This document shows, piece by piece, positions 2,791 to 64,000 of a stretch of DNA of 64,000 nucleotides (position 1 is its first letter; every line of letters starts with the position of its first letter). This DNA is from Cliona cf. orientalis (taxonomy: Eukaryota > Porifera > Demospongiae > Clionaida > Clionaidae), in contig OZ005702.1 in assembly GCA_963930775.1 (NCBI GenBank), forward strand, positions 5,022,001 through 5,086,000, given 5' to 3'. A program made the position numbers and the translations under genes. The notes under the pieces were generated by a model. That model saw only the letters and a program-made list of their open reading frames with translations, was not told where the DNA came from and searched no databases.

Positions 2791-3218
2791 CTCTCCTATT
2801 GTTGGTCTAGTGTGCTTAGCTACTCTATTTCTGGTGTTTTATTTTGAAGCTGTCATACCGTGATAAGTAAAGAGATGTTCCTTTAGAGTGACTAATTTTT
2901 GATTCCACCTTGTTATTTGTACTGATGCATGCATGCGCATGTCTGGTGTTGGAAGAAAAATACATGTATTATCTTGTATGTTCATTTTTGCATCAACTAT
3001 TGCCATGCTTTTGAAAAATTGGCATAACATGCAGACATGGAAAATTTCTTCCCTGACTCTAAGTGCTCCCCAATGTATACCCCTAATGCAACATGCAAGA
3101 GCTCGGGATTCGGATGACAGATATTTCAGAATGGATCATGGAAATGGAAAAAAATCCCTGGAATTGTGCATGTTATCCAATCACGTGATTAAACGCGCAC
3201 GCTGAGCGAGCCGATCTC
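2791..3218. other. SCAMP / NLR-A intergenic region
   Basis: Holds the SCAMP 3' untranslated region and the presumed NLR-A promoter. SCAMP stop and NLR-A start codon are 515 bp apart on the same strand. No TATA box or polyadenylation signal could be assigned with confidence. Confidence 0.4.
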
Positions 3219-3305
3219 TTGTCTTGGTACTGGTGGTCTCTTAACAGAGTGAAAAGAACTTTCCTGTTTGAAGATCATCGCTCGCTACCAGGTCCACCGC
3301 TAAAG

Positions 3306-3621
3306 ATGGCATCTATAAATCAATCGCCTGAAGTCAAATCGATCTTAAAACAAATTCCCGATCTCACAACAGCGTTGTCGAATGATCCACTGGGCGTGGC
3401 AGGGAGACTGCTCAGCAAAGAACTGATTTGTAGAGAAGTGTACTCGAAAATGTTGATAGATTCCTACACTCCAGCAAAGAAAGCAGCCATTCTGGTCGAA
3501 GCGGTGGGAAATACGGTCGAAATAGCTCCAGTCAAGTTTCAGTGCTTTCTCGAGATCCTTTCGAATTCAGAGGTGGTCTGTGCTAGAGAGGTGGTGGAGA
3601 GACTGCGCTCTACCTACCAAA
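3306..3621 (+). CDS. NLR-A exon 1: CARD domain
   Basis: Encodes about 105 residues, MASINQSPEVKSILKQ to LRSTYQ, with the amphipathic six-helix pattern of a CARD (L..I..L...L..DP......LLSKELI, then Y....DSYTPAKKAAILVEAV and FQCFLEIL). CARDs assemble homotypic signalling platforms. The start at 3306 has A at -3 and G at +4. The frame is open further upstream in both A and B (FLFEDH.SLPGPPLK), so a longer protein is possible. The donor GTGAGT follows at 3622, and one base is left to join the giant exon. An alternative reading is another death-fold class such as DEATH or DED. Confidence 0.75.
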
Positions 3622-9533: not shown

Positions 9534-12500
9534 ATCAACTGGACCAAGTTGGTGACAGAGGCAGCTATGAACCAGCAGACATAGCCAGCAAAATCGAAGC
9601 ATTAGAAAATTGGTTTGATAATCTCCAAACTAGAATTATAAATGAATTATCTACTAAGCCTGGTATAACTTTAAAAGAAGTATTGAGCAAACTGACAGGT
9701 CTACCACTGTCACTAAGGAAAGAGTATGAAACATCCATAGCAAAACGCATTCATGGAATGCGAACCGAGACACAGATAAATGATCTATTTATTTTTCACC
9801 TCAACCCTCTTAGCTCATTTATAGACTATGGATTAATTGATTATTTTATTAAACAGTTTGGTAGTGATGGGTTAAAGAAAGATATGGTATCATATTGCAA
9901 TGAAATGGTAGTGTTTATGAAAGCAACTACCATTAAACAGTTAATAGAAGCTGATCATTTTCCTGGCGAAACTGAAATTCCACCAAAATTTTCTCTGATA
10001 GAGGCTAAAATCGGTGAAGATGCTAGCAAGTGTACTTTAGAACAGCTAAATAAAATTAGAAAGAAATACTGCAGTGAAGTAAAGCTATCAGACATCGTCT
10101 TTCATCTGGTGGCAGTTATAGAATCAAACTCCTTCATTGTTAGATGGCTAGTACCATCAGCTCTTGTTGATGATATGGTTATATCTACCCGAAATTTTGA
10201 CCAAAGCTTCTACCATGAGTTCAAAATCACCTCCCTTATCCTGGATGGAATCTGGTTGTTCTTGAGTGAGGCTGAGATTGATGTGATGTCGTTTAAGATG
10301 CAAGTAGGGGATACAGAATTTAGTGATCAATTCCATATCATACACAAGCAAGTATTGTGTGAGATAGATGGAATAGGAAGATCAACAGCTACTGATAAGT
10401 TGTCATCATATTTGATTGACCAGCAACCAACCCTTCAACGAGATGTAAGTGTCAAGATCAGCAAGGCAATTTTGAGCTCCAACTTCCCTATATCTTTGAT
10501 CGACTTCAGAATGCTTAACATTGTAATAGAACTGTTTGGTAGTGATTGCTTGAAGAGGGTAATGGAATCATATTCCCGCTTTATGTCAACCTTTATAAAA
10601 CATTTAACATTAGAGCAGCTTATATATATGCCTCCCATCCAGTCAAGAGTTCCTGAAGGTTTCCTTACAGCTGAGTGTAAAATCAAAGGTGAGCCCTTTG
10701 AATATGGATTAGAAAAGCTTTTCGAATTTCAGACTAAATTCTGCTCCATGGTTAATATCGACACAGTATGTTTTGTTATGGGTGAAGTATGCAAGAAAAT
10801 GAGTGGTTCATTCACTGTTAGCTGGCGTACACCATCAGCTGCTGCAGTTTCTTTCATGAAATTTACCAAAAATATTTTTTAAACCTTCTATCAAGAGTAC
10901 CAAATCACCTCCCTTACCCTGGGTGGAATGTGGATACAGCTAAATGATGCTGAGGTTGATGCAATGTGGTCACGGCTGCATGTGAGTGACACTAACTTTC
11001 AAGTTCAGTTCCATGCTATGTATAAGCAAATTGTGTATGAACTAGAAATTGTACAGTTAGCAGGGCACCAATTATCATCACACATTAAGAGATCACTGAA
11101 GTGTCACCTAAGTACAAGTAACTGGTTAAGTAATGAACTTTTGAATCATAAGCTTCCTGTATCTGTTGTAGACTTCAGAGTCCTTGCTGCTGCAATTGAA
11201 GGGTTTGGTAGTAATTGTTTAAAAAATGTGATGAGTTCATACAGCAAGTACATATCAACCTTTTTGAGGAAATCCACTGCACAGCAGTTAATAAGCTTGT
11301 CAGCCATTCAACTTAAGCCTTCTGGATATTCCACAGTCAAGTGTAGATTCAAGAGAAAGCCTTCACAGTACAAATTAGAAGATGTTTTCAGTTTTCGAAC
11401 CAGTTTCTGTACGATTGCTGACTTCAATGAATTCCGTTTTGTTATGGATGAAGTTACCACAGAAATGAGTGGCTCATTCACTGTTAGCTGGCTTATACCA
11501 CCAGCCTTTATTTCTGATATAATGAAATCAATCAGGAATGTTGACCAGTTTGAAAGCTTCTATCAACGGTACAGAATCACCTCCCTTACCTTGGATGGAA
11601 GGTGGCTATATATGAGAGAGACTGAGATTGATGCAATGTGGTCACGGCTGCATGTGAACAACACAATGTTTAAAGACCAATTCCACACCATGTACAAGCA
11701 AATTGTGTATGAACTTGAAATGGCACAGATAACAGGGCACCAGTTATCATTATTTTTGAATAAATCACTGAAGTGTCACCAGAGTACAAGTGACTCGTTA
11801 AGTCATGAACTTTTGAATCATAAGCTTCCTGTATCTGTTGTAGACTTTAGAGTCCTTGCTGCTGCAATTGAAGGATTTGGTAGTCATTATTTAAAAAGTG
11901 TAATGAGTTCATACAGCAACTATATTATATCAACCTTTTTGAAGAAATCCACTGCACAGCAGTTAATAAGCTTGTCAGCCATTCAAAAGCCTTCTGAATA
12001 TTCCGTAGTCAAGTGTAGATTCAAGCAAAAACCTTCACAGTACAAACTAGATAAACTCTTTAGTTTACGAACCAGATTCTGTGCGATTGCTAACATCAGT
12101 GAACTACGTTTTGTTATGGATGAAGTTAACCCAGAAATGAGTGGCTCATTCACTGTTAGCTGGCTTGTACCACCAGCCTTTATTTCTGGCATAATGAAAT
12201 CTAGCAAAAATTTTGACTATCATAGATTTAATATCACCTCCCTTACCCTGAATGGAATGTGGTTGTATGTGAGCGAGGCTGAGATTGATGCAATGTGGTC
12301 ACAGGTGCATGTGAGCCACACAAAGTTTAAAGATCAGTTTCACACCATGTGCAAGCAAATATTGCATGAAATGAAAGTGCAAAATGTGTCAGAGGAACGT
12401 TTATCATTGTACTTGCAGTCACTAAATTATCAAGAGGAAATAAGCAATCAGTTAAGTCTGGCACTTTTGAGAGAAGAATTCCCTGTATCTTTTGTAGACT

Positions 12501-15500
12501 TCGGAGTCTTTAAGGCTGTCATAGAAGGGGTTGGGAGCGATTGCTTGAAGAGAGTGATGAGGTCCTATTGCAATTACATGTTAATCTTCACAAAGCAGTC
12601 AACTGTAAGGCAGCTAATCAACTTGTCAGCACTCCAATCCGGGCATTATGAACACTTTGTAGCAGCAAAGTGTAGAATTATGGAAGAGACTTCATACTAC
12701 AGATTAGAAAAATTGCTCGAGTTTCGAACCAGATTCTGTGCAATTACCAGCTTTAATGAGGCATGTTTTGTTATTGATGAAATCAATAATATGGAAATGA
12801 GTGGTTCATTCACTGTTACCTGGCTTGTACCATCAGCCGCAGTTTCTTATACATTGAAATTTACCAGAAATATTTTCCAAATAATCTATCAAGAGTATAA
12901 AATCACTTCCCTTACCCTGGATGGAATGTGGATATTCTTAAGTGCAGCTGAGATTGATGTACTGTGGTCACAGATGCATCCAAGCAATTTTGAATCTCAA
13001 TTCCTTACCATGTACAAACAAATTGTATGTGAACTGAAAGCACAAGAGATTTCAAAGAATACGCTATCATCATATTTGATGGACCAGCAACAAAGACTTC
13101 AAAACAATGCAAGTATTCATTTAAGTGAAGCGTTTTTAGAGCATGCCTTCCCAATGTCAATTTTAGACTTTAGAGTCCTGTCCATTATTATAGACATGTT
13201 TGGCAGTGATTGCTTGAAGAGTGTAATGAAATCATTACAAAACTATATAATATCAATTTATACAAGAGAGTCAACAGTAGACCAGCTAGTATCCTTGCCA
13301 CCAATCCCATCTGAACCCTCAGAATATTTCATATCCGTGAAAAGTAGAAACACAGATGAGCCTTCAGATTGCAAATTATTAAGATTGCTCAATTTTCAAG
13401 CTAGGTTGTGCACCAATATTCATATTGATGAAGTGTGTTTTGTCATGGATAAAATAGAAGTAGAAACAGGTGGCTCATTTGGTGTTAAGTGGCATGTACC
13501 ATCCAGCCTAGCATTGGATATACTGAAATCTGCTAATCGATTCGATCTTGAGCAGACTGAGCTCTTTCAAGAAATGAACATACCTTCACTACAGCTTGGT
13601 GGTATGTGGTTGTATAACTGTCAACTAACACCTTTTGGTATTCAACTAAGGAAACGATACCAGCAGTCCCAGGGCTCACCATCTCCAGTTGAATGGATTC
13701 CTTCACCAACAAAGAAAATATTCCGACTAGCTATGATCCAGAGAGAAAGAGTGCAACAAGGTCATATTGAAGACAGATTTATACGAATGACCATCAGTGG
13801 TAGGATTGATGATATTCTTCATGCTAAATCTCCAGTGGAACTTGAGCACATCTTCAGAAGCACACTACATGGAGGTGAGATCATTTTGATTGAAGGAGCC
13901 CCAGGGTCTGGCAAGAGTACTCTAACAGTTCACATCTGTCAGAGATGGGGCAAAGGAGAATTATTTCAGCAATTCACTGTTGTGATCCTTATCCAGTTAC
14001 GAGACCCAGCAGTGCAAAGAGCACAGACCATAGCTGACCTGCTTCCTGTTGAAAATGCTGAGGAGATAGCTGCTGAACTAATAGCTACTAATGGACGTGG
14101 TGTCCTGTGGATCCTTGACGGGTGGGATGAGCTCCCACCTCAACTACAGCAAGACTCCATATTCCATAAACTTATCAAGAGAATGCTTAGTGAATGTTCA
14201 GTTATAGTCACCTCTCGTCCAATTTCATCAGGTGACCTACACCCAGTGGTCTCTTCACGAATTGAGGTGTTAGGGTTCACCCCAGAGGAGCAGAGGCAGT
14301 ACTTCACTGAGTGTCTCAAGGGAGACACCAAAGCTTTTAGTTTAGAAGCCCTACTTGAGAAGATCCAAGAGAACCCTGTGGTACAAAGCATTTGCTACCT
14401 TCCACTCAATGCTGCTTTCATAGTACACACTTTCAAATACAGGAATCAATCACTACCCAACACTGAGTATGAGATCTACTTATCAGTCATTCTCAGCTGC
14501 ATTCAACGCCATTTTAATAAGAGGGAGCACGAAAGTCATGACCTACCTATAGAGCTAGCATCTTTAAATGACCTTTCCAGGATTGAAGCAGTGAGAGAGC
14601 CTTTTCAGTGTCTCTGTGAGCTTGCCTATCGTGGTGTGATGGAGAATAAAGTGACCTTCTCTTCCTGTGACTTGCCTCAAGGATCCAACACACTCAGTCT
14701 TCTTCAAGCAATAGTGAGCTTTCTCCAAAGTGGAAAGTCAGTGTTCTATAACTTTCTTCACCTATCCATCCAAGAAGTTTTGTCAGCCTATTATATGACA
14801 ACAAAGTTGTCAGATAGTGAGCAGGTATCTCAATTCCAGCAGTTGTTCAGCCAGCCTCGTTTTGCTGCTGTGTTTCAGTTTTATGCTGCCATCACCAAGT
14901 TGAAGAGTCCAGGGATATGCCAAGTTGTTGATAGAATAGTAGAAGCAAAGTCCAAGCCTCTCTTAGTGTCTCTTCTTCGCTGCTTACACGAGGCTCAGGA
15001 TCCTGACCTCTGCCTTTATGTAGCTGAGAGACTAGAGTATAGGCTAGATCTTAGTGAGACCTCACTCAGTCTACTGGACTGTCTCTCTGTTAGTTTTTTC
15101 CTCTCTTTTCTTGGTGGTAAGGATATTAGTGTTCATCTTGCCCAATGTCACATTGGTGATTTTGGTGTGAAGTATCTTATAAAGTATCCTTTAATGAGTG
15201 GTTATAGTGACTTGGTAACTATTAACCTTAAAGATAATGTCATTTGTGATGAAGGTGCTTCACATATTGCTAAAATGATGTACTGCATTGAACGTCTACA
15301 TTTAGATATATCAGGAAATCCAATAGGAGTAATTGGGACTTCCTATGTTCTTCAAGCTGTTAGGGAGAGTGCTGTACTAAAAACTTCAGTCCTGATCGGT
15401 GGTGCTATTATAGATGACCTGCTTCCTGTTGAAAATATTCAAAGAACTGCGACTGAGCTACGAGCTACTAATAGTCGTGGTGTTCTATGGATCTTTGATG

Positions 15501-16486
15501 AACTCAAACCTTACTTGCCGTCCATATTCCTTTCACCAATGCACAATTCTGAATGTTCTATCATAGTCACACTATTGATGAAATCATCAAAGATAAGTCC
15601 AAGCCTCTTTTACTGTCTCTTCTTCGCTGCTTACACGAGGCTCAGGATCCTGACCTCTGCCTTTATGTAGCTGAGAGACTAGAGAATAGACTAGATCTTA
15701 GTGATACCTCACTCAGTCTACTAGACTGTCTCCCTTTTAATTTTTTTCTTTCCTCTCTTTCTGATAAAGAAGTTACTGTTAACCTTAGGCGATGCTATAT
15801 TGGTGATCTTGGTGCAAAGTCTTTGACGAAGTTTTTGCCCAGTTTCGTACACTATCACGGTAATGTAGCTATTGACCTATGTGACAGTAATCTCAATCAG
15901 CAAGATGTTTTACATGTTTCTAGGATACTTTACTTCATTGAACATTTATACTTGTCTAGCAATCCAATTGGAGACACTGGAGCATCCTTGATATCTGAAG
16001 CTATAAGAAAAACTACTACACTCAAGACTTTAATCCTGCACGACTGTGACATCACTTCAAGAGGGGCTGAAGATCTTTCAAGAGCACTAACTCAAAATAC
16101 TTCCCTGGAAAAGTTGGACATCGGTTTGAACAGTCTAAAAGATAATGGAATAAGCCACGTGGCTGAGGCCCTCAAACAAAGCAAACAACTAAAGGAGCTC
16201 TGGATTAGTCAGTGTGGAATGACGGACGAAGGAGCAACTTCTCTAGCCAGTGCTCTCACTATCAACAACTCTCTCCAGATGTTGCATATGGGTGGAGATG
16301 GTGGTTTTCCCAAAGGAGGACTTACAGTAGATGGAGTCTCGGCAATAGCTCATGTATTAGCGTACAAATCAATGTTTATTAAACTAGCAATCCCGGCCAG
16401 TTTTGGCCCTTCTACTGTTAATCATTTGAGTCAGGAGGTCAATGAAGCAAGGAAGAGAATTAGACTCCCACCAATTGAAATTGAAG
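9534..16486 (+). pseudogene. NLR-A giant exon: six modules, NACHT, LRR
   Basis: Opens QLDQVGDRGSYEP with a coiled-coil-like segment, then six repeats of a ~220-residue module. Anchor points near 9817, 10495, 11165, 11836, 12490 and 13160 mark the phrase (V/I)DFRxLxxxIExFGSDCLK; each module ends near ITSLTLDGMWLY. NACHT: Walker A GAPGSGKST at 13895-13921, Walker B GVLWILDGWDELP near 14100-14135, then TSRPISS and a winged-helix-like FLHLSIQEVLSAYY. LRRs follow from about 15100 (LKTLILHDCDITSRGAEDL and similar). A shortened second copy of the Walker B region lies at 15412-15572. Lesions: TAA at 10880 and a frameshift near 15570. Modules 3 and 4 are almost identical, so they duplicated recently. 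The module is not a domain I can name. Confidence 0.8.
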
Positions 16487-16601
16487 GTGAGTATATTGTA
16501 TGTTGTAGGGATGTGTTACACCAATTTGTAGTGTTTCTATACTTTTTGTATGCTTAAGTACAGCTGATTGATACCGTGGATGATTATTTTGCAATATGCA
16601 G

Positions 16602-18815: not shown

Positions 18816-18910
18816 CCCATGAGTGACTCATGGGAAGGATTTACGTCACCAAACCCATGAGTGACTCATGGGATTGATTTACGTCACTTTTCCCATGAGT
18901 CACTCATGGG
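18816..18910. repeat. Three 38-bp units with palindromes and bZIP-like sites
   Basis: A 19-bp perfect palindrome CCCATGAGTGACTCATGGG starts at 18816 and 18854, and its complement form (centre C) at 18892, giving exactly 38-bp spacing. Each contains TGACTCA/TGAGTCA, the AP-1 consensus. The spacers carry TTACGTCA (CRE/ATF-like) in units 1 and 2 and TTACGTCC in unit 3. It could be a regulatory cluster or the subterminal array of the neighbouring foldback element. Confidence 0.6.
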
Positions 18911-19544
18911 AAGGATTTACGTCCCTCTTGAATGGCGTAAATTCCCCGAAAAATAACCTTTTAAAGTTTATATACATGGGAATGATTTATGTACTTTTCA
19001 TTAAAGTGTAAAACCCTATCTGACTGGTATTTAACGAGAAATGCGTAAATCCTCCCCATGTATAGACACACATCTAACAAATTATTAAGGAAGGATTTAC
19101 GCCGTGAGATGCCCCTGTAATTAGGTGAATTTGACGTAATTCATTCCCATGTATATAACAAAGGACCAAGGATTTCCATGGAAACTTTCACAATAAGAAG
19201 TGCGTAAATCCTCCCCATGTATAGACACACACCAAGCAGTTTATTAAGGAAGGATTTACGCAATGAGGAGCCCCTGTAATTAGGTGAAGTTGACGTAATT
19301 CATTCCCATGTATCATCACAAAGGAGCAAGGATTTACAGATACAATGTTCTAATTAGTATGCACAGAATACAATCATTATGGAGATCGCCAATTAATTAT
19401 GAATTGAATTAGATAAGCATAATTATTACATTATGACAGGTTTGCTTAATAACATTGTATGCCTTAGTGTGGTGAGCAGGAGAAAAGAGAGAATGGTCAA
19501 GTTAATGTATGCATGCAGGAAGGGGGGAGTTCGGCTGCCTAAGG

Positions 19545-24171: not shown

Positions 24172-27100
24172 ATTTGGCCTAATTAAGCATGTGGGCGTGT
24201 TCCTGGCACTGTGTGGAGTGTGTGCGTGTGCGTTAATGCAGGTTTTATTGCTTCCGACTGGGCGTGGCTTCACAGGCCAGTGCTTGGACATCGGGGCCGG
24301 GGACGTGGCCGCGGCGATAGGTGGGCGTGTCCCGGATGCGGTGGTGACCTTTGAACCCGTCCAGGAGGCTTTGGGGGCGTGGCAGGAGGTCAAAGGTGAG
24401 GCCATGTCTGTTAATGAGGCACTGTACGGCGGTGCGATCGAGGGGCCTGTACGGCTGGACGGAAGCTGACGATGGTTTGAAGCGGATGTGGTTGCGATGA
24501 CGTGTTGTTGCTCCGCCCACACAGGAAATGAGGTGAGCTCTTGCGTGGGCGGTGTGGCAGAACGGCCTCCAAGTGTTTGTGTGTGTTTTGGCCTTGAGGA
24601 AGCTGTGTGTTTTAATTGGGATTGATTGTGGGCTTCCGGTGGACATCCGGTGGTTAGTAGGCACTTGATTGAGAATGGTGGTCCTTGGGGAACAGGGTGG
24701 GGCTGTTTTGGGCGTGGCCTGGCCCCTCCCTTCCGGCTCGGCTTCCGGTCCATGGAGGATGTTAAATGAACACTTCCGGCTCTAGCAGCCACACCGCTGA
24801 GACCTGTGCAATTAAAAGGGCGTGGTTACACAACATGCACCTCACTAATGACTTTGATGTGGTTTAGGTGTCATATCCCCCATCTCACGCCCACGCAATT
24901 TAATGGTACCTTAAAATGCCAAGGAGGGGAGTGCTCAATATGAAGCTCCAAGTTTCTAGGGAGTAGACATCATCATTCAAATGGTTAGTTTCTTTCTATC
25001 TTCAAGCAAATAATTAAGTCCAGGGATGAGGGTGAGCCTTACCAGCTGAAATGGCAAGAGAGTAGATGTCTATGCCATAATTTGTGTAAATCAGCTGACA
25101 ATGAAGCTGAAAAGCACAAGTTCACATCCATGGAGGTTAAATAAGATAGCAATTTTCCCAGGTATATACCACCTGTCTCTCTCTATCTCTCCCCCCTTCT
25201 TACACACACCCCTATACCCCTTGTGTATACACGTGCACAATCTCTTAGGTGATGGTCAGCTATTGATGAGTATGAGATGGTGAGAGGGGGAGCAATGGAG
25301 TTCCACCGCCAAAGAAAAGGTGCTGCCTAGGCCTCAGGTACTCAGGACAGTTAAGGCAAGGGTGCTTGTATTCTGCAGCCAGCAGTCTTATCAGCTTGTA
25401 TCAGCTAATTACATGCTTGTGAATATCATTAGCCGCACGCGCGCGCCGTATTTGCCCTATACTTTGTACAGAGAAGGTCAAGCGATTGGCTGAGTAAACA
25501 AAGAAGCCGTTTGCCGGAGCACTAAACGACCCCACGAAGGAACGCCTCGAGTACCAGTCAAGCCTACGAAGGTCAGTGAACCTCTTGACGATTTATTGGA
25601 GTGAGTCAATCGAGAACGTCTACGATATCGACGCTTGAGACGGCCAGCGGTGGGCATCGAAAGGCAACTTTCGATTGTGGAACGAAAGGTACTTAACAAT
25701 AGGCTAAAATAAATTATCACCGATTAGATATCGATGCCAAGAAGCTACTGTCAAGCTGCTTTGAATATCGGTGAGGTTTTAGTGCTCCGGCAAAGCCACT
25801 ACGCGTTCAATTAACGTCGCTAATAATCGTTTGCTAATTGGTTGGCTACAAGAGTGGGCGTGGTCATAAGCATGCCAATATAAAGTATAGCCATCATATA
25901 GGATATATTTCAAGTCAGGTCTCCTGAGGTAAATGTATATATGTGCTACAACCTCCTGAGTGAGGCTATTCTTGAGACTACTTTGGAGTGGACCCCTGCC
26001 TTAACACCCTTGAGTATAGCTTTTGTTTTGAAGCTATCTTCTGAGGTGCTAAGCTACTCACTCTAGGTCCTCGCACCATCCCTGTGGCTGCTTGAGCACT
26101 TACTCTATCAATTGTAGCTGTCAATATGTCGTGATGGCATAGGAGACTGGTTGTAAAAGCTTTAACCACCTTCTCCAAACCTTCAAGAAGGCCTTTGATG
26201 GCTGCATAATATCTTTCTACCACCTAGAAAGTTCTGTCATTGATTTATACGTATTTTATTCAATGTTTCTATGATAAAATAACAAAATTTTATACTATTT
26301 GTAACAGCGTGTAACTTTGGAACCGCTCGATGGAAAAACTTCGTTCCAGTCTTGTATTGTAGAGCAGTACAAGAGCAATTGAATGATGCTTGAATCATGG
26401 GAATCCATCCAGGGGAACCAAAACGTGCCACTTTTTGTGAGCGCTTGAGAGTAGCATGCATAAAAGCGGTCGCCGCGGAGCTCATGAATGTCTCCGGGTT
26501 ATAGGACTTGAACGAGCAGAAAGTAGAAGAGTTCCTCTGTCTTCTGGTCTTTGTTTAGAATCCTAGAAGTGAAAGATGGCCTAGATAGGACAGGTAAGAA
26601 AAATGGATAAAAAGCGGCAAAAATTGCATGCACTGGAATGTGCCACCGGATGCACTTCCTGGATCTGCAACAATTGGACCGCTGGTAACGACTGTATGCA
26701 TCTTTCATAGATCCATCGGCCGCCAGAGTTCATCCTGTTCCTGAACCTGCAGAAGAGCATGGGAGGAAGTGTTGAAGATCAACGACCAGTCAGCATAAAG
26801 CTAATCCCGACAGGTAAGGACGGCTGCTGCATACCCAATTATTGAAGAATAATCAATGGCAATGTAGTATTGCATGGGGGGCTTAAATGAGACCCTACAT
26901 GTACATGTACATCTATTATATGCACATGTAGTTATCATATGCAGCGTTATTTGCATACTCTACATGTGAAAACATTTGTAAGACTGTTATATTTCTTATA
27001 GCGCTCCTGAGCTTAGCTTCATCGAGCCACAAGTTTTGACCAACGACCATGTCAAGGAACTGACAGAGGAAGTGGAGAAACTAGCGAAGGAAAATGTTGG

Positions 27101-29507: not shown

Positions 29508-32500
29508 CTATGCTGAGCTCTGTCAGAATACCCCTCCAGTTCCTTTACCTCCTTTTCTCCTTTGTCTGAGAGGAGAGAGAGAGAGTGACACACATACAAA
29601 GAGAGAAAAGCCAAATCTGATTCATACTCAAAATGAACAGTTCTTCACTCACACGCAGACCGGTACCGTATCTCTTCTTAATCCTATTAAGCTCCTTCCG
29701 TCGTTGAAGGTCGAGGGACCCGCCCACTTCCTCTGTGGCGTCCCCCGGCTGTACTGTGCCGCTGACTCCTGCCACGCCCCCAACTGGGCGGGGTTACAAT
29801 AAGTGTCTGGGGTGCCGCCTTTCGGGTCACAAACAGCACTATAGGGATTAAACAGCACAATAGAGATTATACAGCTTTAGAGATTATTTAGTTATCTCTA
29901 GTTCTAATATCTGTGTCTCTCTCTATGTAGTTTATTCCCCATGGCTGGAGTGTGCAGAGTCTTTGGATCCATACTATGATAGGGTCTCCAGTTCTTTTAG
30001 CTTCAATTCAGCTTCCCTGTTGGAGATATTCTACCGGGACCTGTTCTATTGGAACGAACATAAGATTGTTCAGAGAACGATCGTTGCCTGCGAAATGGTG
30101 AGTGCCCCAGTCTCGTTAGGGTTGGTTCTAGGGATCCCATGAAAAGGTTTGCATAGGCTGGGGCCATTTTCGTACCCATAGCCGTTCCCTGTAGTTGCAG
30201 GAAGAAGTCTCCGTTGAATTCAAATACATTGTTTTTGAGGACTATGTTTAGCATTTCCTCAAGAAGTTCAGGGTTTGGACGGAAGCCGGGGGTGTGGATT
30301 CTGGTCTTGTTTTAGAGCCTTCACACTGGCGTTAATGCCGTCTTCGTGTGGAATGTTAGTGTAGAGTGATGACACGTCAGTGCTGGCTAGAATACTGTGT
30401 TGTGGGATCTTGGTGGTTGTCACTAGGGTTACAAAGTCCTGTGTATCTTTTATGAAGGACGGTAGTTGTTTAAACTAGTGGTTGTAGCCAGAAGTCAACA
30501 AAGCTTGAGATATTTTCTGTTACGCTGTTGACGCCAGACACTATTGGTCTAATTCCCATTGGATTTTTGTGAATTTTCTTTAGGAAGTACAGTTGGGATG
30601 TTCTGTAGTCTTCCGGGGGGGGGGGGGGGGGGGGGGTGCAAAAGGTCACGAAGTTGTGTGGTAACCATTTGTTGAAGGTTACGTTTCCCAAGAATCTCAT
30701 TATGAAGGGTGTTGTGTCCGATTTTGGTTGTTTGTAAACATACGGACTGTCAAGGTGTTTCAGACCTTCCTCTATGTAGTCTTTTTTATTAAGTACTACC
30801 ACTGTTGAGCCTTTGTCGGCTTTATTGATCACTATATCTTTGTTTTCCTTCAGTGATCTGAGCGCTAGTCTCTCTGCTTTTGAAATGTTGTCTTTGTTGT
30901 TTTGTTTGGTTTTGTCCGCTAGGAACATAATTTCCTCTTCTAGTTTGTTCAGTACTTGGTTGATGCAATCATTGTTGCTCACAGCTTTGGATATTGTTTC
31001 TGTTTTTCGTTTGAATAGTTTTATTGTATCCCAGGGGTCATAGATTTCTGTGGTTGGGTCGGTTACATCTTGTGTGTCGCTGGTGATTGTGCTAGTGCTG
31101 GGTTGGTGTTGGGAGGGTTTCGGTTTCGTAGCCTGCATGTATTGGGAGCACATTAATTTTGTTTTCTTAGCCTGTTTATGCCATTATTTATATCGTCAGC
31201 GTCTATTGATTTTGGTTTGGGAATAAATGATAACCCTTTTGATAATACCCTTTTTTCAGCACAAGTTAACTATAATATAATATTGTTGGATAGTTTAGTC
31301 CCAGTTCTTAGTTTCTTTTTAGTCTATGTCTTTTCCTTTTTATCTTCGCTCTCTCTGTGGCTGACAGCCTCTTCCCTTTCCTCCTCTGCCGCCGCGGCCT
31401 TTTCCTCGGCCTCTGTTCCCTTTCTGGGACATCTGTGGGGGTGGGAGGGTATGTGTTATAGTTAGGGTGGGAGGGTTTGTTACATACCTCATTGACTGCC
31501 TTTATCAGTCCCAATATTGCTGTGTCTCTGTCCTGTGTGTTGTTTAGGACCGTCTCGGCTATCCTCGGCCTCTTGGGGTCCAGGGCGGCCTGTCCATCAT
31601 TGAGGTCTGGGCCTCGTTTCCTCGAGGATTTATCCTTGAGTTCCTTGGCCTTCACCTCACAGCATTTATTTGTCTTCGTAATCAGTTCTGCACATTTGTT
31701 CTGCAGACTCGACTTTTCAGTCTCGCTGCCGGCTGATGCACAGATATCATTCATTTCATTTTCTGTGTCTGATGCCTTGGTGTTCGCTTGTTCCAGAACG
31801 CTAATGTAGTGGAATTTTAGTAACCTGCATCTCTCGAGACTGCATTTCTCGAGCTCGTCATCCACTGCGGTTTTGAGCTCGTTCGTTTGACCGAACGCTG
31901 TCAGTTTAAGTTGTGGGGTGAGGCCTCTCGGGAGTGTTTTGTTTTTTAGTGCATCTTTTATATTTTTCAGGTGGTGGTTTGCCCTTATTGCATTGAGGGC
32001 CTCCGTCTCCAAGCACTCGCCTTTCTTAATCAGCGCCTTCTCCAGTTCAGAGGTTGGGACCGCGTGTGGGTGTGAGCTGTTATTGGCCTCCGTATCCGAG
32101 TTGTCTGCGTCGAGCAGATGGCCTATCCTCAGTGCCATTATCTTGGATAAGGTACGTGGCGGATTAAAATCGGATGGTGTTGGGTTATTTGGTTGTGCTG
32201 GTTCTCTCGTTGGAGGTAATGGGTCCTCCTGTTGGGGGAGGGGCTCCGATTCGTGGTCGGATGGTATTGGGGTCAGAGGTTGGTTTGGGGGAGTTTGGTT
32301 CCCTGTGTTCTGTTGGGGAGGGTGCTCTTGTGGTGGAGGGAGTTGTGTTTGTGTGACTGTTAGTGGTGTGGTTCTTGGGATGGTTGGGTCCGAGATAGAT
32401 TGTCTCTGGGTTCGGGGGTCACTCAGAGGGTATGTTTCCCTTGTGTGTCTACAGCGGGGCCGTTCCTCTCTTTGTGGGAGGGGTTATTGGGCCAGGGGGT

Positions 32501-41205: not shown

Positions 41206-41401
41206 GCTGACAAAGGTCAAAGTTTAGATCTAATTAACGCACACCTACTTACGCGCATGCGTTATGCTCGAGCGCTCAATCCCGCGCGCCACGCCCCTCT
41301 CTTCTCGGATTGAGGGGCGTGGTGCGCGATGTGCAGGCTCGTATCTGAAAACAATTTTCCTATTTGAAGATCATTGCTCGCTACCAGGTCCACCGCTAAA
41401 G
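41206..41401. promoter_or_regulatory. Divergent promoter region, AGGF1-like / NLR-B
   Basis: The putative first exon of the minus-strand gene starts at 41205 and the NLR-B ATG is at 41402. The 196 bp between contain CACGCCCCTCTCTTCTCG and a near-complement CGAGA/GAGGGGCGTGG, giving a CACGCCC hairpin. No TATA box. Shared promoter is inferred from geometry only. Confidence 0.4.
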
Positions 41402-42049
41402 ATGGCATCTATAAATCACTCGCCTGAAGTCAAATCGATCTTAAAACAAACTCCCGAACTCACAACAGCGTTGTCAAATGATCCACTGGGCGTGGCAGAG
41501 ATACTGCTCAGCAAAGAACTGATTTGTGAGGAAATTCACTCGAAAATATTGATAGATTCTTACACTCCAAGGAAGAAAGCAGCCATTCTGGTCAAAGCGG
41601 TAAGAAATACGATCAAAATAGCTCCAGACAAGTTTCAGTGTTTTCTCGAGATTCTATCAGAGCAGCAGGTCTGTGCTAAAGAGGTGGTGGAGAGACCAGG
41701 GGCGTAGCTTAGTTGTTTCCTTGTTGCCCGGAACCCCCCCCTGGCAGTCAGATTCAGCATTATCTTAGTATGATTTGGCTATCAGGAAACCCCCTTGGTT
41801 TCCAGATTCAATATGCAGGCACTAAAGTCTCCTAAAACTTAGCCTAGATCTCCTCCTTTTGTGCTTTTCTCTGCCAAAATCTCGAGAAGCGAGCAAACCC
41901 TAGCTGAAATGGCGATCGTCAATTAGAGGGCGTGGCCGAAAAATGGGCGTGGTCGTAAATTTTTTCGCGCGCGCTTCGCGCGCAACTGTTAGGAAACCCC
42001 CTCAGAAAATCCTGGCTACGCCCCTGGAGACTGCGTTCTACCTACCAAA
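41402..42049 (+). pseudogene. NLR-B exon 1: CARD interrupted by an MITE
   Basis: Codes MASINHSPEVKSILKQTPEL through CAKEVVER, closely matching NLR-A. At 41697 a 330-bp element interrupts the last helix. The exon resumes at 42027 (GAGACTGCG...) and ends at the conserved donor GTGAGT (42050). The interrupted frame meets TAG at 41705. The insert length is divisible by three but contains stops. Confidence 0.8.
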
Positions 42050-51000: not shown

Positions 51001-54000
51001 TATTAAGCACATGCCCGTGGCACGGCCCCTTGCGGCATCCGAGTCAGCATAATGAGTAGCATTGATATACTGAATAAAAAATGACATAATTATCATACCT
51101 GTATTACTCTGTTCCCCTCTGCTTATAAGTTCTGATTTGGTTATCCTCAACACATTCTGTGTCATGGTGAGTCTCAGTGACCAATGCTTCTAATCACCTT
51201 TTATGAGGATCATGAATACAATGTGTGCATGCTGCCCATTTCCATCAGCCACTTACATAGGTGGGTAGGGAGTGTTCATGTGTGACAAATGAGCTTTTTA
51301 ACCAACCACCCCTAGGCACCTACATGTATTAATTTGTGAGTGGTTCTGTTTTTTACTTGGATTAGGGTTCAGGGGCGGATCCATAGGAGGGTCCAGGGGG
51401 CCCATAGATCCCTGGCTTTATGCATCAGCTATACTAAACCTTGATCTGCCATATTATATCGACTACAAAATGTAGCTAGAAACCTGTTTATAGCTACATG
51501 GTGAAAAAGTCAGGTGCCATTGACTTTCTATGACTGTTGGATGCCCTGAATTAAGACCACAAAGCAAAAAATGAAGGTCTTTGGATTCAAGCAATTATTA
51601 TAGTATTATGCTACCATAGCCTCCTAGTAAGCTAAGAGCTAAGGTCATTGCAAGTATGAGCTTAATCTGTGCCTCCTTTTCAATGGTTTGGTCATAGGTC
51701 AACTGGACCAAGTTGGCAGTTATGAATCAGTGGACATAGCCAGCAAAATTGAAAAGTTAGAAGATCAATTTAATAGTCTCCGAACTAGGATTATGAATGA
51801 ACTATCTAGACCGGACATAACTGTGCAAGTATTATTAAATCAACTAACAGGTCTACCACTATCATTGAGGAGAGAATATGAACCATCAATAGCAAAACGT
51901 ATACGTAGAATGCGAACTGAGACACAAGTAAATGAATTATTTATTATTCACCTCAATCCACTCACATCATTTATAGACTATGGATTGATTGAATATGTTA
52001 TAAAGAAGTTTGGTAGTGATGCCTTGCAGCGAGATATGCGATCATACTGTGGGGAAATGGTAGTATTCATGAAAGAGACAACAATCAAACAGTTAATAGA
52101 TCATTTGCCTGGCCAAACAGAAATCCCACCAAAATTTTCACTGATAAAGGCCAAAATTGGCCGAAATGCAAGTGAATGCACTTTAGAAGAGCTTAATACA
52201 ATCAGAAAGAGATTTTGCAGTGAAGTAAAACTGTCTGAGATTGTCTTTCATCTGGTGGCGGTTGTAGAATCCAACTCCTTCATTGTTAGTTGGCTAGTAC
52301 CATTAGCCCTTGTTGATATAGTTAAATCTACCAGAAGTCTTGACCAAAGCTTCTACCAGGAGTTCAAAATCACCTCCTTCACCCTGGATGGAATGTGGCT
52401 GTTTTTGACTGCAGCTGAGATTGATGTGATGTGGTCAAAGATGGATGTGGGTGACAAAAAATATAATGATCAATTTCGTATCATGCACAAGCAAATATTG
52501 TATGAGTTAGATGGAATAGGAAGATCAGCAGCCACTGATAAGTTGTCATCATATTTGATGGACCAGCAACCAACCCTTCAGAGGGATGTAAATGTCAAGA
52601 TCAGCAAGGCAATTTTAAGCCCCAACTTTCTAATATCTTTGATAGACTTCAGAATGCTTACCATTGTTACAGCAATAGAACTGCTTGGTAGTGATTGCTT
52701 GAAGAGGGTAATGGAATCCTATTGCCATTCCTTTATAAAGCAGTCAACTTTAGAGCGGCTTATAGACTTGTCACCCATCCAATCAAGAGTTCCTGAAAAT
52801 TTCCTTACAGCTGTCAGTGAGTGTAAAATCGGAGGTGAGCCCTTCAAGTATGGATTAGAAAAGCTTCTCGAATTTCGGACTAAATTCTGCTCCATGATTA
52901 ATATCAACAAAGTATGTTTTGTTATGGGTGAAGTACGCAAGAGAATTAGTGGTTCATTCATTGTTAGCTGGCATATACCATCAGCTGCAGTTTCTTATAT
53001 AGTGAAATTTACCAGAAATATTTTCCCTAGCTTTTATCAAAAATATAAAATGACCTCCCTTACCCTGGATGGAATGTGGATATTTTTAAGTGATACTGAG
53101 ATTGATGCAATGTGGGATTCAAGCAACTTTGAATTTCAGTTCCTTACCATGTATGGACAAATTGTACGTGCACTGAAATGGCAAGAGATATCAAAGAATA
53201 AGCTATCATCATATTTAATGGATCAGAATCCAAAACTTCAAAGTAATGCAAGTAATAAATTAAGTGAGGCATTTCTAAAGCATGACTTACCTTTGCACTT
53301 CAGACTCCAGTCCACTATCATAGACAAGTTTGGCAATGATTGCTTAAAGAATGTAATGAAATCATTTCACAACTATGTGTACACAAGAGAGTCAACTGTA
53401 AAGCAGCTAGTATCTTTGCCACCAATCCCATCTCAAATTTCCAAGTATTTCGTATCCGTGGAGAGTAGAAACGGAGAAGACCCTTCTCATTATAGACTTG
53501 CAAGACTGCTCAATTTTCAAGCTAGGTTCTGTGACATTCTTAATATTGATGAAGTGTGTTTCGTCTTGGAAAAAATAGAAACAGAAACAGGTGGCTCATT
53601 TATTGTTAAGTGGTATGTACCATCCAACCTAGCATTGGAGTTACTAAAATCTGCTAATCAGCTCAATCTCAAGCAGACTGAGCTCTTTCAAGAAATGAAC
53701 ATACTTTCACTAAAGCTTGGTGGTATGTGGCTATATAACTATCAACTAACACCACTTGGTTCCAAACTAAAGGAGAAATACCAGCAGTCCCAGGGTTCAC
53801 CATCTCCAGTTGAATGGATTCCTTCACCAACAAAGAAAATATTCCGACTAGCTATGATCCAGAGAGAGAGAGTGCAACGAGGTCATATTGAAGACAGGTT
53901 TGTACGAATGACCATCAGTGGTAGGGTAGATGACATTCTTCATGCTAAATCTCCAGTAGAACTTGAACACATCTTCAGGAACACACTAGATGGAGGTGAG

Positions 54001-57000
54001 ATCATTTTGATTGAAGGAGCCCCAGGATCTGGCAAGAGTACTCTAACAGTCATTATCTGTCAGAGATGGGGCAAAGGAGAGTTATTTCAACAATTCACTG
54101 TTGTGATCCTCGTCCAGTTACGAGATCCAGCAGTGCAAAGAGCACAGACCATAGCTGATCTGCTTCCTGCTGAAAATGCTGAGGAGATAGCTGCTGAACT
54201 AATAGCTACTAATGGACGTGGTGTCCTGTGGGTCCTTGACGGGTGGGATGAGCTCCCACCTCACCTACAGCAACAATCCATATTTCATAAACTTATCAAG
54301 AGAATGCTTAGTGAATGTTCAGTGATAGTCACCTCTCGTCCAATTTCATCAGGTGACCTACACCCAGTGGTCTCTTCACGAATTGAGGTGTTGGGGTTCA
54401 CCCCAGAGGAGCAGAGGCAGTACTTCACTGAGTGTCTCAAGGGAGATACCCAAGCTTTAGAAGCCCTACTTGAGAAGATCCAAGAGAACCCTGTGGTACA
54501 AAGCATCTGCTACCTTCCACTCAATGCTGCTTTCATAGTGCACACTTTCAAATACAGGGATCAATCACTACCCAACACTGAGTATGAGATCTACTTATCA
54601 GTTATTCTCAGCTGCATACAACGCCATTACGACAGGGAGGGCAGAGGTCATGACCTACCTAGAGAGCTAGCATCTTTAGATGATCTTTCTAGGATTGAAG
54701 CAGTGAGAGAGCCTTTTCAGTGTCTCTATGAACTTGCCTATCGTGGTGTGATGGAGAATAAAGTGACCTTCTCTTCCAGTGAATTGCCTCAAGGATCAAA
54801 CACACTCAGTCTTCTTCAAGCAATAGAGAGCTTTCTCCAAAGTGGAAAGTCAGTGTTCTATAACTTTCTTCACCTCTCAGTCCAAGAGGTTTTGTCAGCC
54901 TATTACATAACCACAAAGATGTCAGATAGTGAGCAGGTGTCTCAATTTCAGCAGTTGTTCAACCAGCCTCGTTTTGCTGCTGTGTTTCAGTTTTATGCTG
55001 CCATCACCAAGTTGAAGAGTCCAGGGATATGCCAAGTTATTGATAGAATAGTAGAAGCCAAGTCCAAGCCTCTCTTAGTGTCTCTTCTTCGCTGCTTACA
55101 TGAGGCTCAGGATCCTGCCCTCTGCCTTTATGTAGCTGAGAGAATAGAGTATAGGCTAGATCTTAGTGAGACCTCACTCAGTCCACTGGATTGTCTCTCT
55201 ATCAGTGTTTTTATCTCCTCTACTACTGATAAGAAAATTGCTGTTAATCTTTCCCAGTGCCAAATTGGTGATCTTGGTGCCAAGTGTCTGACAAAGTATC
55301 TGTCAATGAGCATTTATACAGACCTTGTAACTATTAACCTTAAAGGCAATGCCATTTATGATGAAGGTGCTTCACATATTGCTAAAATACTTTACTTTAT
55401 TAAGTGTCTACGTTTAGATATATCAAAAAATCCAATAGGAGTAACTGGTACTTCCAATATATTTGAAGCTATAAGAGCAACTACTGTACTAAAAACTTTA
55501 GTCCTGATCGGCTGTACCATCATAGACGACCTGCTTCCTGTTGAGAATACTCAAGAAATAGCAACTGGACTACCAGCTACTAATGGCTGTGGTGTCCTGT
55601 GGATCTTGGATGATCCCCAATCTTGCCTACACTTCATTTTATTCGCACCAAAGCATTCAGAATTAAGTACTGTACGCTCTGTAACAGTTGCAGTTACGTC
55701 CCGTCACATTATTGATAAAATTGTCAAAGATAAGCCCAAGCTTCTCTTAGTGTCTCTTCTTCGCTGCTTATACAAGGCTCAGGATCCTGCCCTCTGCCTT
55801 TATGTAGCTGAGAGACTAGAGTATCAACTAGATCTTAGTGGGACCTCACTCAGTCCACTGGATTGTCTCTCTGTTAGTTTTTTCCTTTCCTCTCTTAGTG
55901 GTAAGAAAACCATTATTGATCTTCACTTCTGCACTATTGGTGATCGTGGTGCTAAGTGTCTATCGAAGTATCTACATGCACTGCCAGATAATTTGGAGTA
56001 TGTCAGTAAGATAGCCATTGACCTTGCTGGTAATGAGATTCTTAAAGCGGGTGCTTTATATGTTGCTAGTATGCTTTACTTTATTGAACATCTATACTTT
56101 AAACATAATCCAATTGGAGACACTGGAGCATCCTTGATATCTGAAGCTGTAAGAGAAACTGCTACTCTCAAGACTTTGATCCTGTACAACTGTGGCATCA
56201 CTTCAAGAGGAGCTGAAGATCTTGCAAGATTACTAGCTCAAAATAGTTCTCTGGAGAAGTTGGACATTGGTTGGAATAGTCTAGGAGATGAGGGAATAAG
56301 CCATGTGGCTGAGGCCCTCAAACAAAACAAACAACTGAAGGAACTCTGGATTGGTCGGTGTGGAATGACAGACAAAGGAGCAGCTTCTCTAGCCAGTGCT
56401 CTCACTGTCAATAACTCTCTCAAGATGTTGCATATTGCTGGACTTAAAGGAGCACTAACAAAACATGGACTGTCAACAATAGCTCATTCACTGACTAACA
56501 AGTCATTGTTTGTGAAACTAGCAATCCCTCGTAGCTTTCCCTCTATTACTGCAGATCTTTTAAGTCAGAAGATCAATAAAAAAAGGACGAGAAATGGACT
56601 ATCACCCATTGAAATTGAAGGTGAATGTATTGTCACAGTGAGGATGTATAGAGGGGAGAACCATAATATGCATGCTATTTTTTTTTCCTGAGACTTTCCA
56701 TAATTTTTATAGTAACCAATAGTAGGTATTATTCCACTTCTCTAGGTCTTTTTAGGCTAATTAATCATGATAAAGCTACCTCTGACTGTTAAATATCAAT
56801 CCCCTTGAGATTTTTTCTCTATCCACTAACTTCACTTCCCTCTCGCCTGTCATGTTTGACAACATCAGCATTTGTCAGGCTTATGGTAGGTAATCAGCCT
56901 CAGAAGTTGTAGCTATAGTTTAAAATTTTCTGGGGAACATGTAGACCCCTTAGTGTGCATGGGCACAATGACAATATTCCCCCAGGGCTACACTTACAAG

Positions 57001-58670: not shown

Positions 58671-59422
58671 AGGATGGTCTGTGCTAAGGAGGCGGTGGAG
58701 AGACTGCGTTCTACCTACCAAAGTGAGTCACTGAGTTCACTGGTACATGTTAGAGCGGATGGGCAGATAATATCGAAGAATGGGAGGGGCTGGTATACTT
58801 TAATAGGAGCATAATTTGGTATGCCACATGTTATTGCTTGGACCCTTCCTCCCTCCCCCTATTCTTAACGCCACACTTGGAAATGCTAGATTACCCAAAT
58901 AATATGCGCATGCATGCGCAGCAAGGGGTGAGGCAACTGGTTTGTGTGTTGTCTGTCGTTATCGTCAGCATGAAAATCACCAGATTTCGAGATTCAGAGC
59001 AACTCGTAAGCATGACGAATCTGTTGAAATCGTCGAAAAATTTGCAACATTGTGCTTCGAATCGTTTGGTAAGGCCCACGAGTGTCGTAAACACTGTGTT
59101 GGCCACGCCTATTAACCGCACCTTCTTATGCTTTCTGCTCATGCACACAACCCAGAGGACGCATCTATAATAATAAAATTAGCATTCCTGCATAAAATTA
59201 TTTAATTAGCGATTTAGTCCTGTACTTGTTTCGATCATAGATTTGATCAAAGACGACTTTCTTAGCCTGATTTCAAATCCAGAGAGGGAGAACAGACGAA
59301 CGAAGGCTTAATCAGCCCTGAAATGCTTGATTATGACCAATAGCAAAGCCTCGGTACTCGCTTTATTTAGCTGGGATTGAACAGGGTTGAAAGGTTGGTT
59401 TGTCAAGGCTCACCGAGTTCTT

Positions 59423-62608: not shown

Positions 62609-63514
62609 TATTTATAACACTACTAAATTGCTTCTTAATAATAATGTTTTCAGTAGATGCAGAACTCGCATCTCGATGGTTATTATACTGATTATCTTGC
62701 TAGCTCAGATAGCAGAACCTTATAATATTGAGGTAATTATTACTCAGTATACACAGGGTTCTTTAAGATGGGCTAAAAGTTGTCATCACATATATCGTTT
62801 TTGTTATCTTATCAAAGAAAGATGGATATTGAAGACATGGGTGACATGCCTATATCAAGAGTACAGTAGGCTATGCATAAATTGTCACTATGGCCAGGGG
62901 GGCTGCCCTATCTCATAGCTAGATATGGCCTTGGCAGCCTTTACTGTGGATCTCGCAGAGAATGACGGAAGAGGAGCTTGGTATAATGTAATTTATGCAG
63001 AGGATGAAGTGGGAAAGTATAATAATTATTATTATTACAGTATTTGGACTTGTTGAGTTTTGGCTCACCTCATACTTGATGAAATACAGTTGTAATCCAT
63101 GATTTGCTTACCATCAAATTGATTTCTATTTCTCGGATTAAATAGTCATGATAACGATCCAGCAGACCAATAATATGATAATACTTCCAACCTTTGACCT
63201 TGTATATATGCATGCTGCTCTCTTCAGGTTACTGAAGCTGTACCCATGCATGCCACATTCCTTAAGTATGAACTTAGAGTGTATTTGGCCCCTGTATATT
63301 ATATGTTTGGTGGTATTATTATAGCTTCCATAACGCATAATCACATATTATTTGAAACATATACACTTCCTTTGTGGCCATGTGCGTACATACCAATTGT
63401 TAAGTGTCACAAGTACAATCAGTAATTACTGTCTTGCTAAGCTAAACAGAATGCAGGTCAATACCAATTTTGATGGAGTATCATGTACTATCTTTTGGAA
63501 CATTTTGGTTATAG

Positions 63515-64000
63515 GTCAACTGGACCAAGTTGATGACAGAGGCAGGCATGAACAGATGGACGTAGCCAGCAAAATTGAAAATTTAGAAGATCAGTTTGAT
63601 AATCTCCAAACTAGAATTATAAATGAACTTTCTACTAAATCTGGTATAACTGTGCATAACTTATTAAATCAACTAACTCGATTACCACTGTCGTTGAGGA
63701 GAGAATATGAATCGTCCATAACAAAACGTATGCGTAGAATGCGAACTGAGACACAAGTGAATGTTCACCTCAATCCTCTCACGTCGTTTATAGACTATGG
63801 ATTGATTGAATATGTTATAAAGAAGTATGGCAGTGATGCCTTAAAGCGAGATATGCTGTCATATTGTAGTGAAATGGTAGTGTTCATGAAGGAGACAACA
63901 ATTAAACAGTTAATAGATCATTTTCCTGGCCAAACTGAAATCCCACCAAAGTTTTCTCTAATAGAGGCCAAAATCGGTGACGATGCTAGCAAGTGCACTT
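63515..64000 (+). CDS. NLR-C giant exon, 5' part
   Basis: Open for 486 bases from the acceptor to the window edge. Encodes the coiled N-terminal segment (ASKIENLEDQFDNLQTRI) and about half of the first module, ending within DDASKCT. Very close to NLR-B apart from the four-codon deletion. Whether the NACHT and LRR parts are intact cannot be seen. Confidence 0.8.

What the first reader, a model, noticed from the sequence alone, without database searches (positions are those of the whole stretch)
9817..13540. Uncharacterised ~220-residue module, tandemly repeated between CARD and NACHT, six copies in one NLR and three in its paralogue
Seen directly: six spaced copies in NLR-A (about 660-680 bp apart) and three in NLR-B, all inside one exon. 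Modules 3 and 4 of A are nearly identical at DNA level, so the array grows by unequal exchange. I cannot assign the module to a named domain. NLRs normally vary LRRs; here a repeat on the N-terminal side of NACHT varies, which would change receptor reach or ligand surface.
Basis: partly seen in the sequence, partly recalled or inferred. Interest (0 to 1): 0.85.

Follow-up and report, generated by a model that had tools for sequence, protein, structure and literature searches.

The report
Tandem bridge-domain arrays in NLR receptors
In a large cluster of animal immune-receptor genes, the stretch between the signalling end and the molecular switch is built from one to eight copies of the same two-part block, which probably belongs to a known family of bridging domains usually seen once per protein.

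Summary
The repeat is real. NLR-A holds six units (9785-13702) and NLR-B three (51937-53835), about 220 residues each. A has an in-frame stop within the array and a later frame change, so it is probably a pseudogene; units 3 and 4 are 84% identical in DNA, not nearly identical. The window lies in a cluster of 45 module loci with 1-7 matches each; related proteins reach 8. Arrays have distinct first and last unit classes and an expandable interior (nearest relative of the same class for 271 of 272 modules). No Pfam match over cut-off and no NCBIfam or PDB sequence match was found for the module. Predicted: a helical half plus a beta-alpha-beta-beta-alpha-beta half, with serine at the beta2-beta3 turn in 259 of 278 modules. 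Outside the cluster, 34 of 74 modules follow a DEATH or CARD exon. These features fit the TRADD-N superfamily, described as single-copy bridges; profile searches do not confirm membership. Best reading: an extensible TRADD-N-like bridge between CARD and NACHT. No diversifying selection was detected.

The parts
3189..3621 (+). CARD exon of NLR-A (open frame to 3665; likely donor GTGAGT at 3622)
   Evidence: 80% identical over 118 aa to the CARD-B exon, which has a sub-threshold Pfam CARD match, E 0.0033; CARD-A itself has no Pfam match; donor
9534..15667 (+). NLR-A large exon: helical lead-in, six modules, NACHT, first LRRs; interrupted by a stop
   Evidence: acceptor TTTTAG before 9534
9785..10462 (+). 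module A1 (first class)
10463..11131 (+). module A2 (interior class), contains the in-frame stop
10880..10882 (+). in-frame TAA stop
   Evidence: hit list shows 1 TAA
11132..11803 (+). module A3 (interior class)
11804..12457 (+). module A4 (interior class); 83.7% DNA identity to A3
12458..13126 (+). module A5 (interior class)
13127..13702 (+). module A6 (last class), joins NACHT
13874..14383 (+). NACHT of NLR-A
   Evidence: Pfam PF05729 E 1.8e-23; boundaries
15553..16554 (+). further LRRs of NLR-A in another frame
   Evidence: Pfam LRR_6 E 6e-17, ORF
41234..41695 (+). CARD exon of NLR-B, its 3' end displaced to 42028 by an inserted element
51698..56688 (+). NLR-B large exon, open: helical lead-in, three modules, NACHT, LRRs
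51937..52611 (+). module B1 (first class; 77.6% protein identity to A1)
52612..53256 (+). module B2 (interior class; 65% to A2)
53257..53835 (+). module B3 (last class; 73% to A6)
53995..54504 (+). NACHT of NLR-B (95.8% to A's)
63502..64000 (+). start of a third array NLR (two modules, runs off the window)
   Evidence: C14:5085799-5086902

Best explanation
The module is a compound bridge unit: a helical half (predicted six helices, fold family unconfirmed) followed by a four-stranded beta-alpha-beta-beta-alpha-beta half that is probably a divergent TRADD-N domain. The ancestral form stands once, often behind a DEATH or CARD domain. In this CARD-NACHT-LRR family, in-frame duplication within one exon turned it into an array with a first unit adapted to the CARD side, a last unit adapted to the NACHT side, and zero to six exchangeable interior units. 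The array most likely acts as an extensible bridge that couples, and at rest restrains, the CARD relative to the NACHT ring; unit number sets spacing and the number of docking surfaces. Shown: arrays, classes, number variation, death-fold neighbours, turn serine. Predicted: the fold. Inferred: TRADD-N membership, restraint, and the meaning of length.
For: Copy number 1-7 matches at 45 loci, 1-8 in 95 proteins, while the part after the P-loop averages 651-884 aa whatever the unit number. Nearest neighbour in the same position class: 68 of 69 first, 66 of 66 last, 114 of 114 interior, 23 of 23 single (unchanged when neighbours of 80% identity or more are barred). Nearest relative inside the same protein for 33 of 114 interior units and no first or last unit. 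Of the other classes, first units are closest to single-copy modules (49%, against 40% and 30%). Death-fold exon upstream within 6 kb for 34 of 74 modules outside the array loci, against DEATH downstream 3 and CARD downstream 1, and a random mean of 0.6; CARD exon upstream within 15 kb for 38 of 45 array loci. AF2 fold pLDDT 78.9, pTM 0.74, with the same secondary-structure order in all three B modules. Dystroglycan-complex and ACT-type chains among the structural matches (that the aspartokinase regulatory parts are ACT domains is recalled), which the TRADD-N paper also reports as profile relatives. Serine at the beta2-beta3 turn in 259 of 278.
Against: Pfam TRADD-N profiles find no module in the genome (PF13820: 1 weak match elsewhere, E 5.55; PF09034: 0 matches), and hmmscan of modules against all of Pfam does not list them. 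All structural Z are below 8 and Foldseek has no match at E<=0.001, so a chance common fold is possible. The residue before the serine is often Asn or Asp; tiny (G, A, S, C) plus Ser in 115 of 278 only. TRADD-N is described as predominantly single-copy. 40 of 74 outside modules show no DEATH/CARD within 6 kb upstream in the capped lists, and at 12 kb the DEATH contrast falls to 33 upstream against 13 downstream. 7 of 45 array loci have no CARD match within 15 kb. No experiment bears on restraint or spacing, and the NACHT part of the 3-module model is unreliable.
Confidence: 0.55

Rival explanations
1. Recognition array: the interior modules are the sensor surface and their number and divergence set what the receptor binds, as LRRs or fungal WD40 arrays do.
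For: Among 23 paralogous proteins last modules average 50% identity, less than the LRR-side region (69%), NACHT (86%) or post-NACHT (90%). Interior and last classes have higher site entropy than the first class (1.42 and 1.53 against 0.94). Synonymous divergence A-B is 0.32-0.52 in modules but 0.11 in NACHT, so arrays are exchanged or older than the NACHT they are joined to.
Against: No diversifying sites: 0 of 86 (first), 3 of 158 (interior), 0 of 89 (last) at p<0.05, no more than chance; omega 0.32, 0.54, 0.55. Related modules also stand in short exons with no NACHT in the stretches read (L031, L034, L035), which suits signalling better than sensing.
Confidence: 0.27
2. Neutral length variation: once tandem, the interior units come and go by unequal exchange with little effect, under relaxed constraint.
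For: Interior omega (0.54) exceeds first (0.32); P-loop-to-+400 segments 93-94% identical belong to proteins with 2 to 7 modules; several cluster copies hold stops or split frames, A among them.
Against: Interior modules keep omega well below 1 and conserved positions; the first and last classes stay at their ends, so the array is not free to shuffle.
Confidence: 0.15
3. Assembly or gene-model artefact: module numbers reflect misassembled repeats.
For: Tandem near-repeats can collapse; a few loci have split or odd spacings (loci 5, 14, 20, 23, 36, 42).
Against: Units are only 25-71% identical to each other in protein within A, too different to collapse; 27 public proteins match the held loci at >=99% over at least 150 aa (four of them are the window's own), and P0001, whose best matches in this genome are about 80% identical, has 8 units.
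Confidence: 0.03

Closest known systems
TRADD-N superfamily, NCOA6 clade (Kaur et al., eLife 2021, PMC8195603; passages read)
   Same: RRM-like four-stranded alpha+beta fold, serine at the beta2-beta3 turn, placed behind Death-like domains, expanded in the sponge Amphimedon with ankyrin or SH3-LRR C-termini; ankyrin-linked relatives here too (accessions; names recalled)
   Different: Paper reports a significant tendency to single copy between two domains, and none of its 9 NACHT passages links NACHT to TRADD-N (figures and source data not seen); here 2-8 tandem copies, with an added helical half, in NLRs; Pfam profiles do not match
Zebrafish NLR-B30.2 family with N-terminal repeats (PMC4852459, passages)
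   Same: Large clustered NLR family with repeats N-terminal to NACHT
   Different: Those are approximately 30-residue peptide repeats in groups 2, 3 and 4; here ~220-residue two-part units in one exon
Podospora HET-D/HET-E WD40 arrays (PMC12222747, abstract and impact statement)
   Same: NLR with a domain made of tandem units
   Different: C-terminal, highly identical by concerted evolution, with hypervariable sites under diversifying selection; here N-terminal, diverged, no such sites found
Sponge NLRs, Dysidea avara (PMC12909245; abstract, discussion part 1, section 3.3 and passages)
   Same: CARD/DEATH-NACHT-LRR expansions; 'RPT, internal repeat' appears in the Figure 2 legend
   Different: No repeat domain upstream of NACHT is characterised in what I read

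Membership tests
NLR (NACHT-LRR, NLRC type) | NACHT followed by LRRs, with N-terminal death-fold effector | tested here: met
   NACHT and LRR_6 above cut-off in B; upstream CARD exon with sub-threshold Pfam score; splice joining inferred from donor/acceptor, no transcript
TRADD-N superfamily | RRM-like beta-alpha-beta-beta-alpha-beta fold | tested here: met
   AF2 secondary structure E132-139 H148-161 E170-176 E180-187 H188-199 E210-215, repeated in three modules; predicted, not solved
TRADD-N superfamily | tiny residue plus serine in the beta2-beta3 turn | tested here: inconclusive
   Ser met in 259 of 278 modules; the preceding residue is Gly in 67 of 114 interior and 38 of 66 last units but Asn in 65 of 69 first and 22 of 23 single units, so tiny plus Ser holds in 115 of 278
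TRADD-N superfamily | profile similarity to NCOA6/DEDD2/TRADD | tested here: inconclusive
   HMMER profiles PF13820 and PF09034 give no module hit; the superfamily was unified by iterative and profile-profile search, which I could not run
TRADD-N superfamily | association with Death-like domains | tested here: met
   34 of 74 outside modules within 6 kb, two more found on inspection of four negatives; 38 of 45 array loci with CARD upstream
DED (helical half) | sequence match to PF01335 | tested here: inconclusive
   none at E<=10 in ten sequences; none of 94 DED matches in the genome lies at an array module; hhalign probability 0.2% against a few sponge DEDs

The most novel reading that the evidence does not exclude
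An NLR lineage in which a TRADD-N-type bridge, elsewhere mostly single, has become a capped, copy-number-variable array, so that the coupling arm between effector and switch, rather than the LRR sensor, is the part that varies most between paralogues and is exchanged between them: an NLR with a length-encoded output.
Probability: 0.35. Interest if true: 0.8.

Novelty: new variant of a known kind. Interest (0 to 1): 0.6.

Why it matters
Animal NLR variability is usually sought in LRRs. Here the segment between the death-fold domain and the NACHT varies more, in number and in sequence, with a clear grammar (first, interior, last). If the module is TRADD-N, it ties a large NLR cluster to the Death/TRADD-N adaptor expansions reported for sponges, and makes a simple question testable: does bridge length set signalling threshold or partner choice?

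Tried and rejected

Rows dropped: one search used 148 of the 153 matches (C14 rows, without a 135-bp fragment) plus 15 added; the searches score only the best 150 or so candidates, so counts are lower bounds, and wide gaps at some loci suggest missed units. One search used 95 of 122 proteins with a P-loop (those with a complete array start). One search kept 272 modules (69 first, 114 interior, 66 last, 23 single) plus 6 outgroups, dropping proteins under 900 aa, without P-loop or with a cut array start, and partial modules; it includes window-B modules together with their database copy P0009, which the barred-neighbour test removes. One search used 74 rows (those outside the array loci, except one partial match at C14:7784395), the DEATH matches (the 150 best scored of 1,292 candidates), and 56 of the 103 CARD matches; the 49 matches were not used. 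One search kept 95 distinct intact modules (22 first, 60 interior, 13 last). One search used 23 proteins with one P-loop, a complete array start of two or more units and at least 750 residues after the P-loop.
Full report
What is there. The window holds two NLR genes and the start of a third. NLR-A has a large exon from about 9534, with six units of about 220 residues between a CARD exon upstream (3189-3621) and the NACHT (13874-14383); NLR-B has three units between 51937 and 53835, followed by its NACHT (53995-54504) and LRRs. Unit spacing in A is 654-678 bp, always a multiple of three. A1 matches B1 (78% protein identity), A2 matches B2 (65%), A6 matches B3 (73%), so A differs from B by three extra interior units. 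A contains a TAA inside the array (10880-10882) and a change of frame near 15.55-15.67 kb, so it is probably a pseudogene in this assembly. The CARD exon of B is split by an element of about 330 bp with inverted ends. At least one other six-unit locus is open, C14:5011842-5015663 in a 2127-residue frame.

Scale. The window is part of contig C14 of a 217-Mb genome. Combining three searches, 163 module matches fall into 45 loci, with 1 (4 loci), 2 (9), 3 (9), 4 (9), 5 (8), 6 (4) or 7 (2) matches; the two 7s contain split fragments. A CARD exon lies upstream on the same strand within 15 kb for 38 of the 45; one lies downstream for 18, as can be expected in a tandem cluster. In public proteins, 95 with a P-loop and a complete array start hold 1-8 units (26, 26, 11, 10, 12, 6, 3, 1), and the mean N-terminal length grows by roughly 220 residues per unit while the part after the P-loop averages 651-884 whatever the number.

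Grammar of the array. In a tree of 278 modules every interior unit has its nearest relative among interior units (114 of 114), every last unit among last units (66 of 66), 68 of 69 first units among first units and 23 of 23 single modules among single ones. The same holds on identities when neighbours of 80% identity or more are barred; with 70% or more barred, interior and last units begin to mix (16 and 4 cases). Using only proteins of this genome, 49 of 50 agree. The nearest relative lies in the same protein for 33 of 114 interior units and for no first or last unit. So the ends are fixed and the interior expands by internal duplication. Segments of 400 residues from the P-loop that are 93-94% identical belong to proteins with 2 to 7 units. 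Between A and B, dS is 0.52 in unit 1, 0.38 in unit 2, 0.32 in the last unit and 0.11 in NACHT, so different parts of one exon have different histories; exchange or conversion between paralogues is the likely cause (inference).

Where else it occurs. Further copies stand on at least eleven other contigs. Of 74 outside the array loci, 30 have a DEATH and 4 a CARD exon upstream on the same strand within 6 kb; controls: DEATH downstream 3, CARD downstream 1, random placement mean 0.6 and maximum 4 in 500. At 12 kb the numbers are DEATH 33 upstream and 13 downstream, CARD 6 and 2. The other 40 show none within 6 kb. Partners downstream include NACHT-LRR (L032, L033, by eye), a coiled-coil-like tail (L034, by eye; its upstream exon is a DEATH domain, E 1.6e-10), and ankyrin repeats (P0169, P0222, P0223; Pfam accessions, names recalled).

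Reading. A paper on the TRADD-N superfamily (PMC8195603; passages read) describes an RRM-like fold, a tiny-plus-serine motif at the beta2-beta3 turn, profile links to ACT and dystroglycan domains, and 357 NCOA6-clade proteins in the sponge Amphimedon, most of their architectures with one to three Death-like domains before the TRADD-N and ankyrin, SH3-LRR or other domains after it. Most of that fits the module here. What does not fit is that Pfam's TRADD-N profiles miss it, that the residue before the serine is often not tiny, and that the paper finds TRADD-N predominantly in single copy. I therefore call it TRADD-N-like, with membership likely but unproven. The authors propose that TRADD-N contacts both flanking domains and holds them inactive. 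A capped array, with one unit class at the CARD end and another at the NACHT end, suits that idea and suggests that length was added in the middle.

Selection. Counting changes on trees of intact modules gives omega 0.32 (first, 22 sequences), 0.54 (interior, 60) and 0.55 (last, 13), with a nonsynonymous excess (p<0.05) at 0 of 86, 3 of 158 and 0 of 89 tested sites. Across 23 paralogous proteins mean identities are first 69%, last 50%, NACHT 86%, post-NACHT 90%, LRR side 69%. The last units are thus the most diverged of the parts compared, but without a detectable hypervariable surface. The test averages over old paralogues and gene conversion may blur it.

Novelty. Searches of the held library listed no paper that I recognised as describing tandem TRADD-N or a repeated domain between CARD and NACHT; I judged most papers by title and abstract start only, and the library lacks most subscription journals, so this is not proof. 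N-terminal repeats (zebrafish, about 30 residues) and tandem sensor repeats (Podospora) are known in NLRs, which makes this a new variant of a known kind.

Noticed in passing
window 14030-14118 and 15410-15498: An 89-bp piece of the NACHT coding sequence recurs (78%) inside the LRR region of NLR-A; a similar piece is read in B's LRR region, a trace of an old internal duplication. Some cluster ORFs hold two NACHTs.
   Followed up: partly
window 41695-42028: About 330-bp element with inverted ends (CCAGGGGCGTAGC ... GCTACGCCCCTGG) inside the CARD exon of NLR-B.
   Followed up: partly
window 58674-58767: Remnant of a CARD exon 3' end, upstream of the third NLR.
   Followed up: no
window 24245-24781, 46308-46844, 47371-47907 (minus): Three near-identical copies of one element with a 178-residue open frame.
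   Followed up: no
window 18816-18923: Tandem 38-bp repeat containing a palindrome (CCCATGAGTGACTCATGGG).
   Followed up: no
window 37172-37795 and 38806-39318; 39612-40550 (minus); 30470-31183 (minus): Open frames that by eye and recall resemble transposase fragments (hAT-like; DDE-like) and a retroelement; not tested.
   Followed up: no
G000 contig C6 6.34-6.97 Mb (minus strand): A second large cluster of DEATH matches and single modules, a possible Death/TRADD-N-like adaptor expansion.
   Followed up: partly
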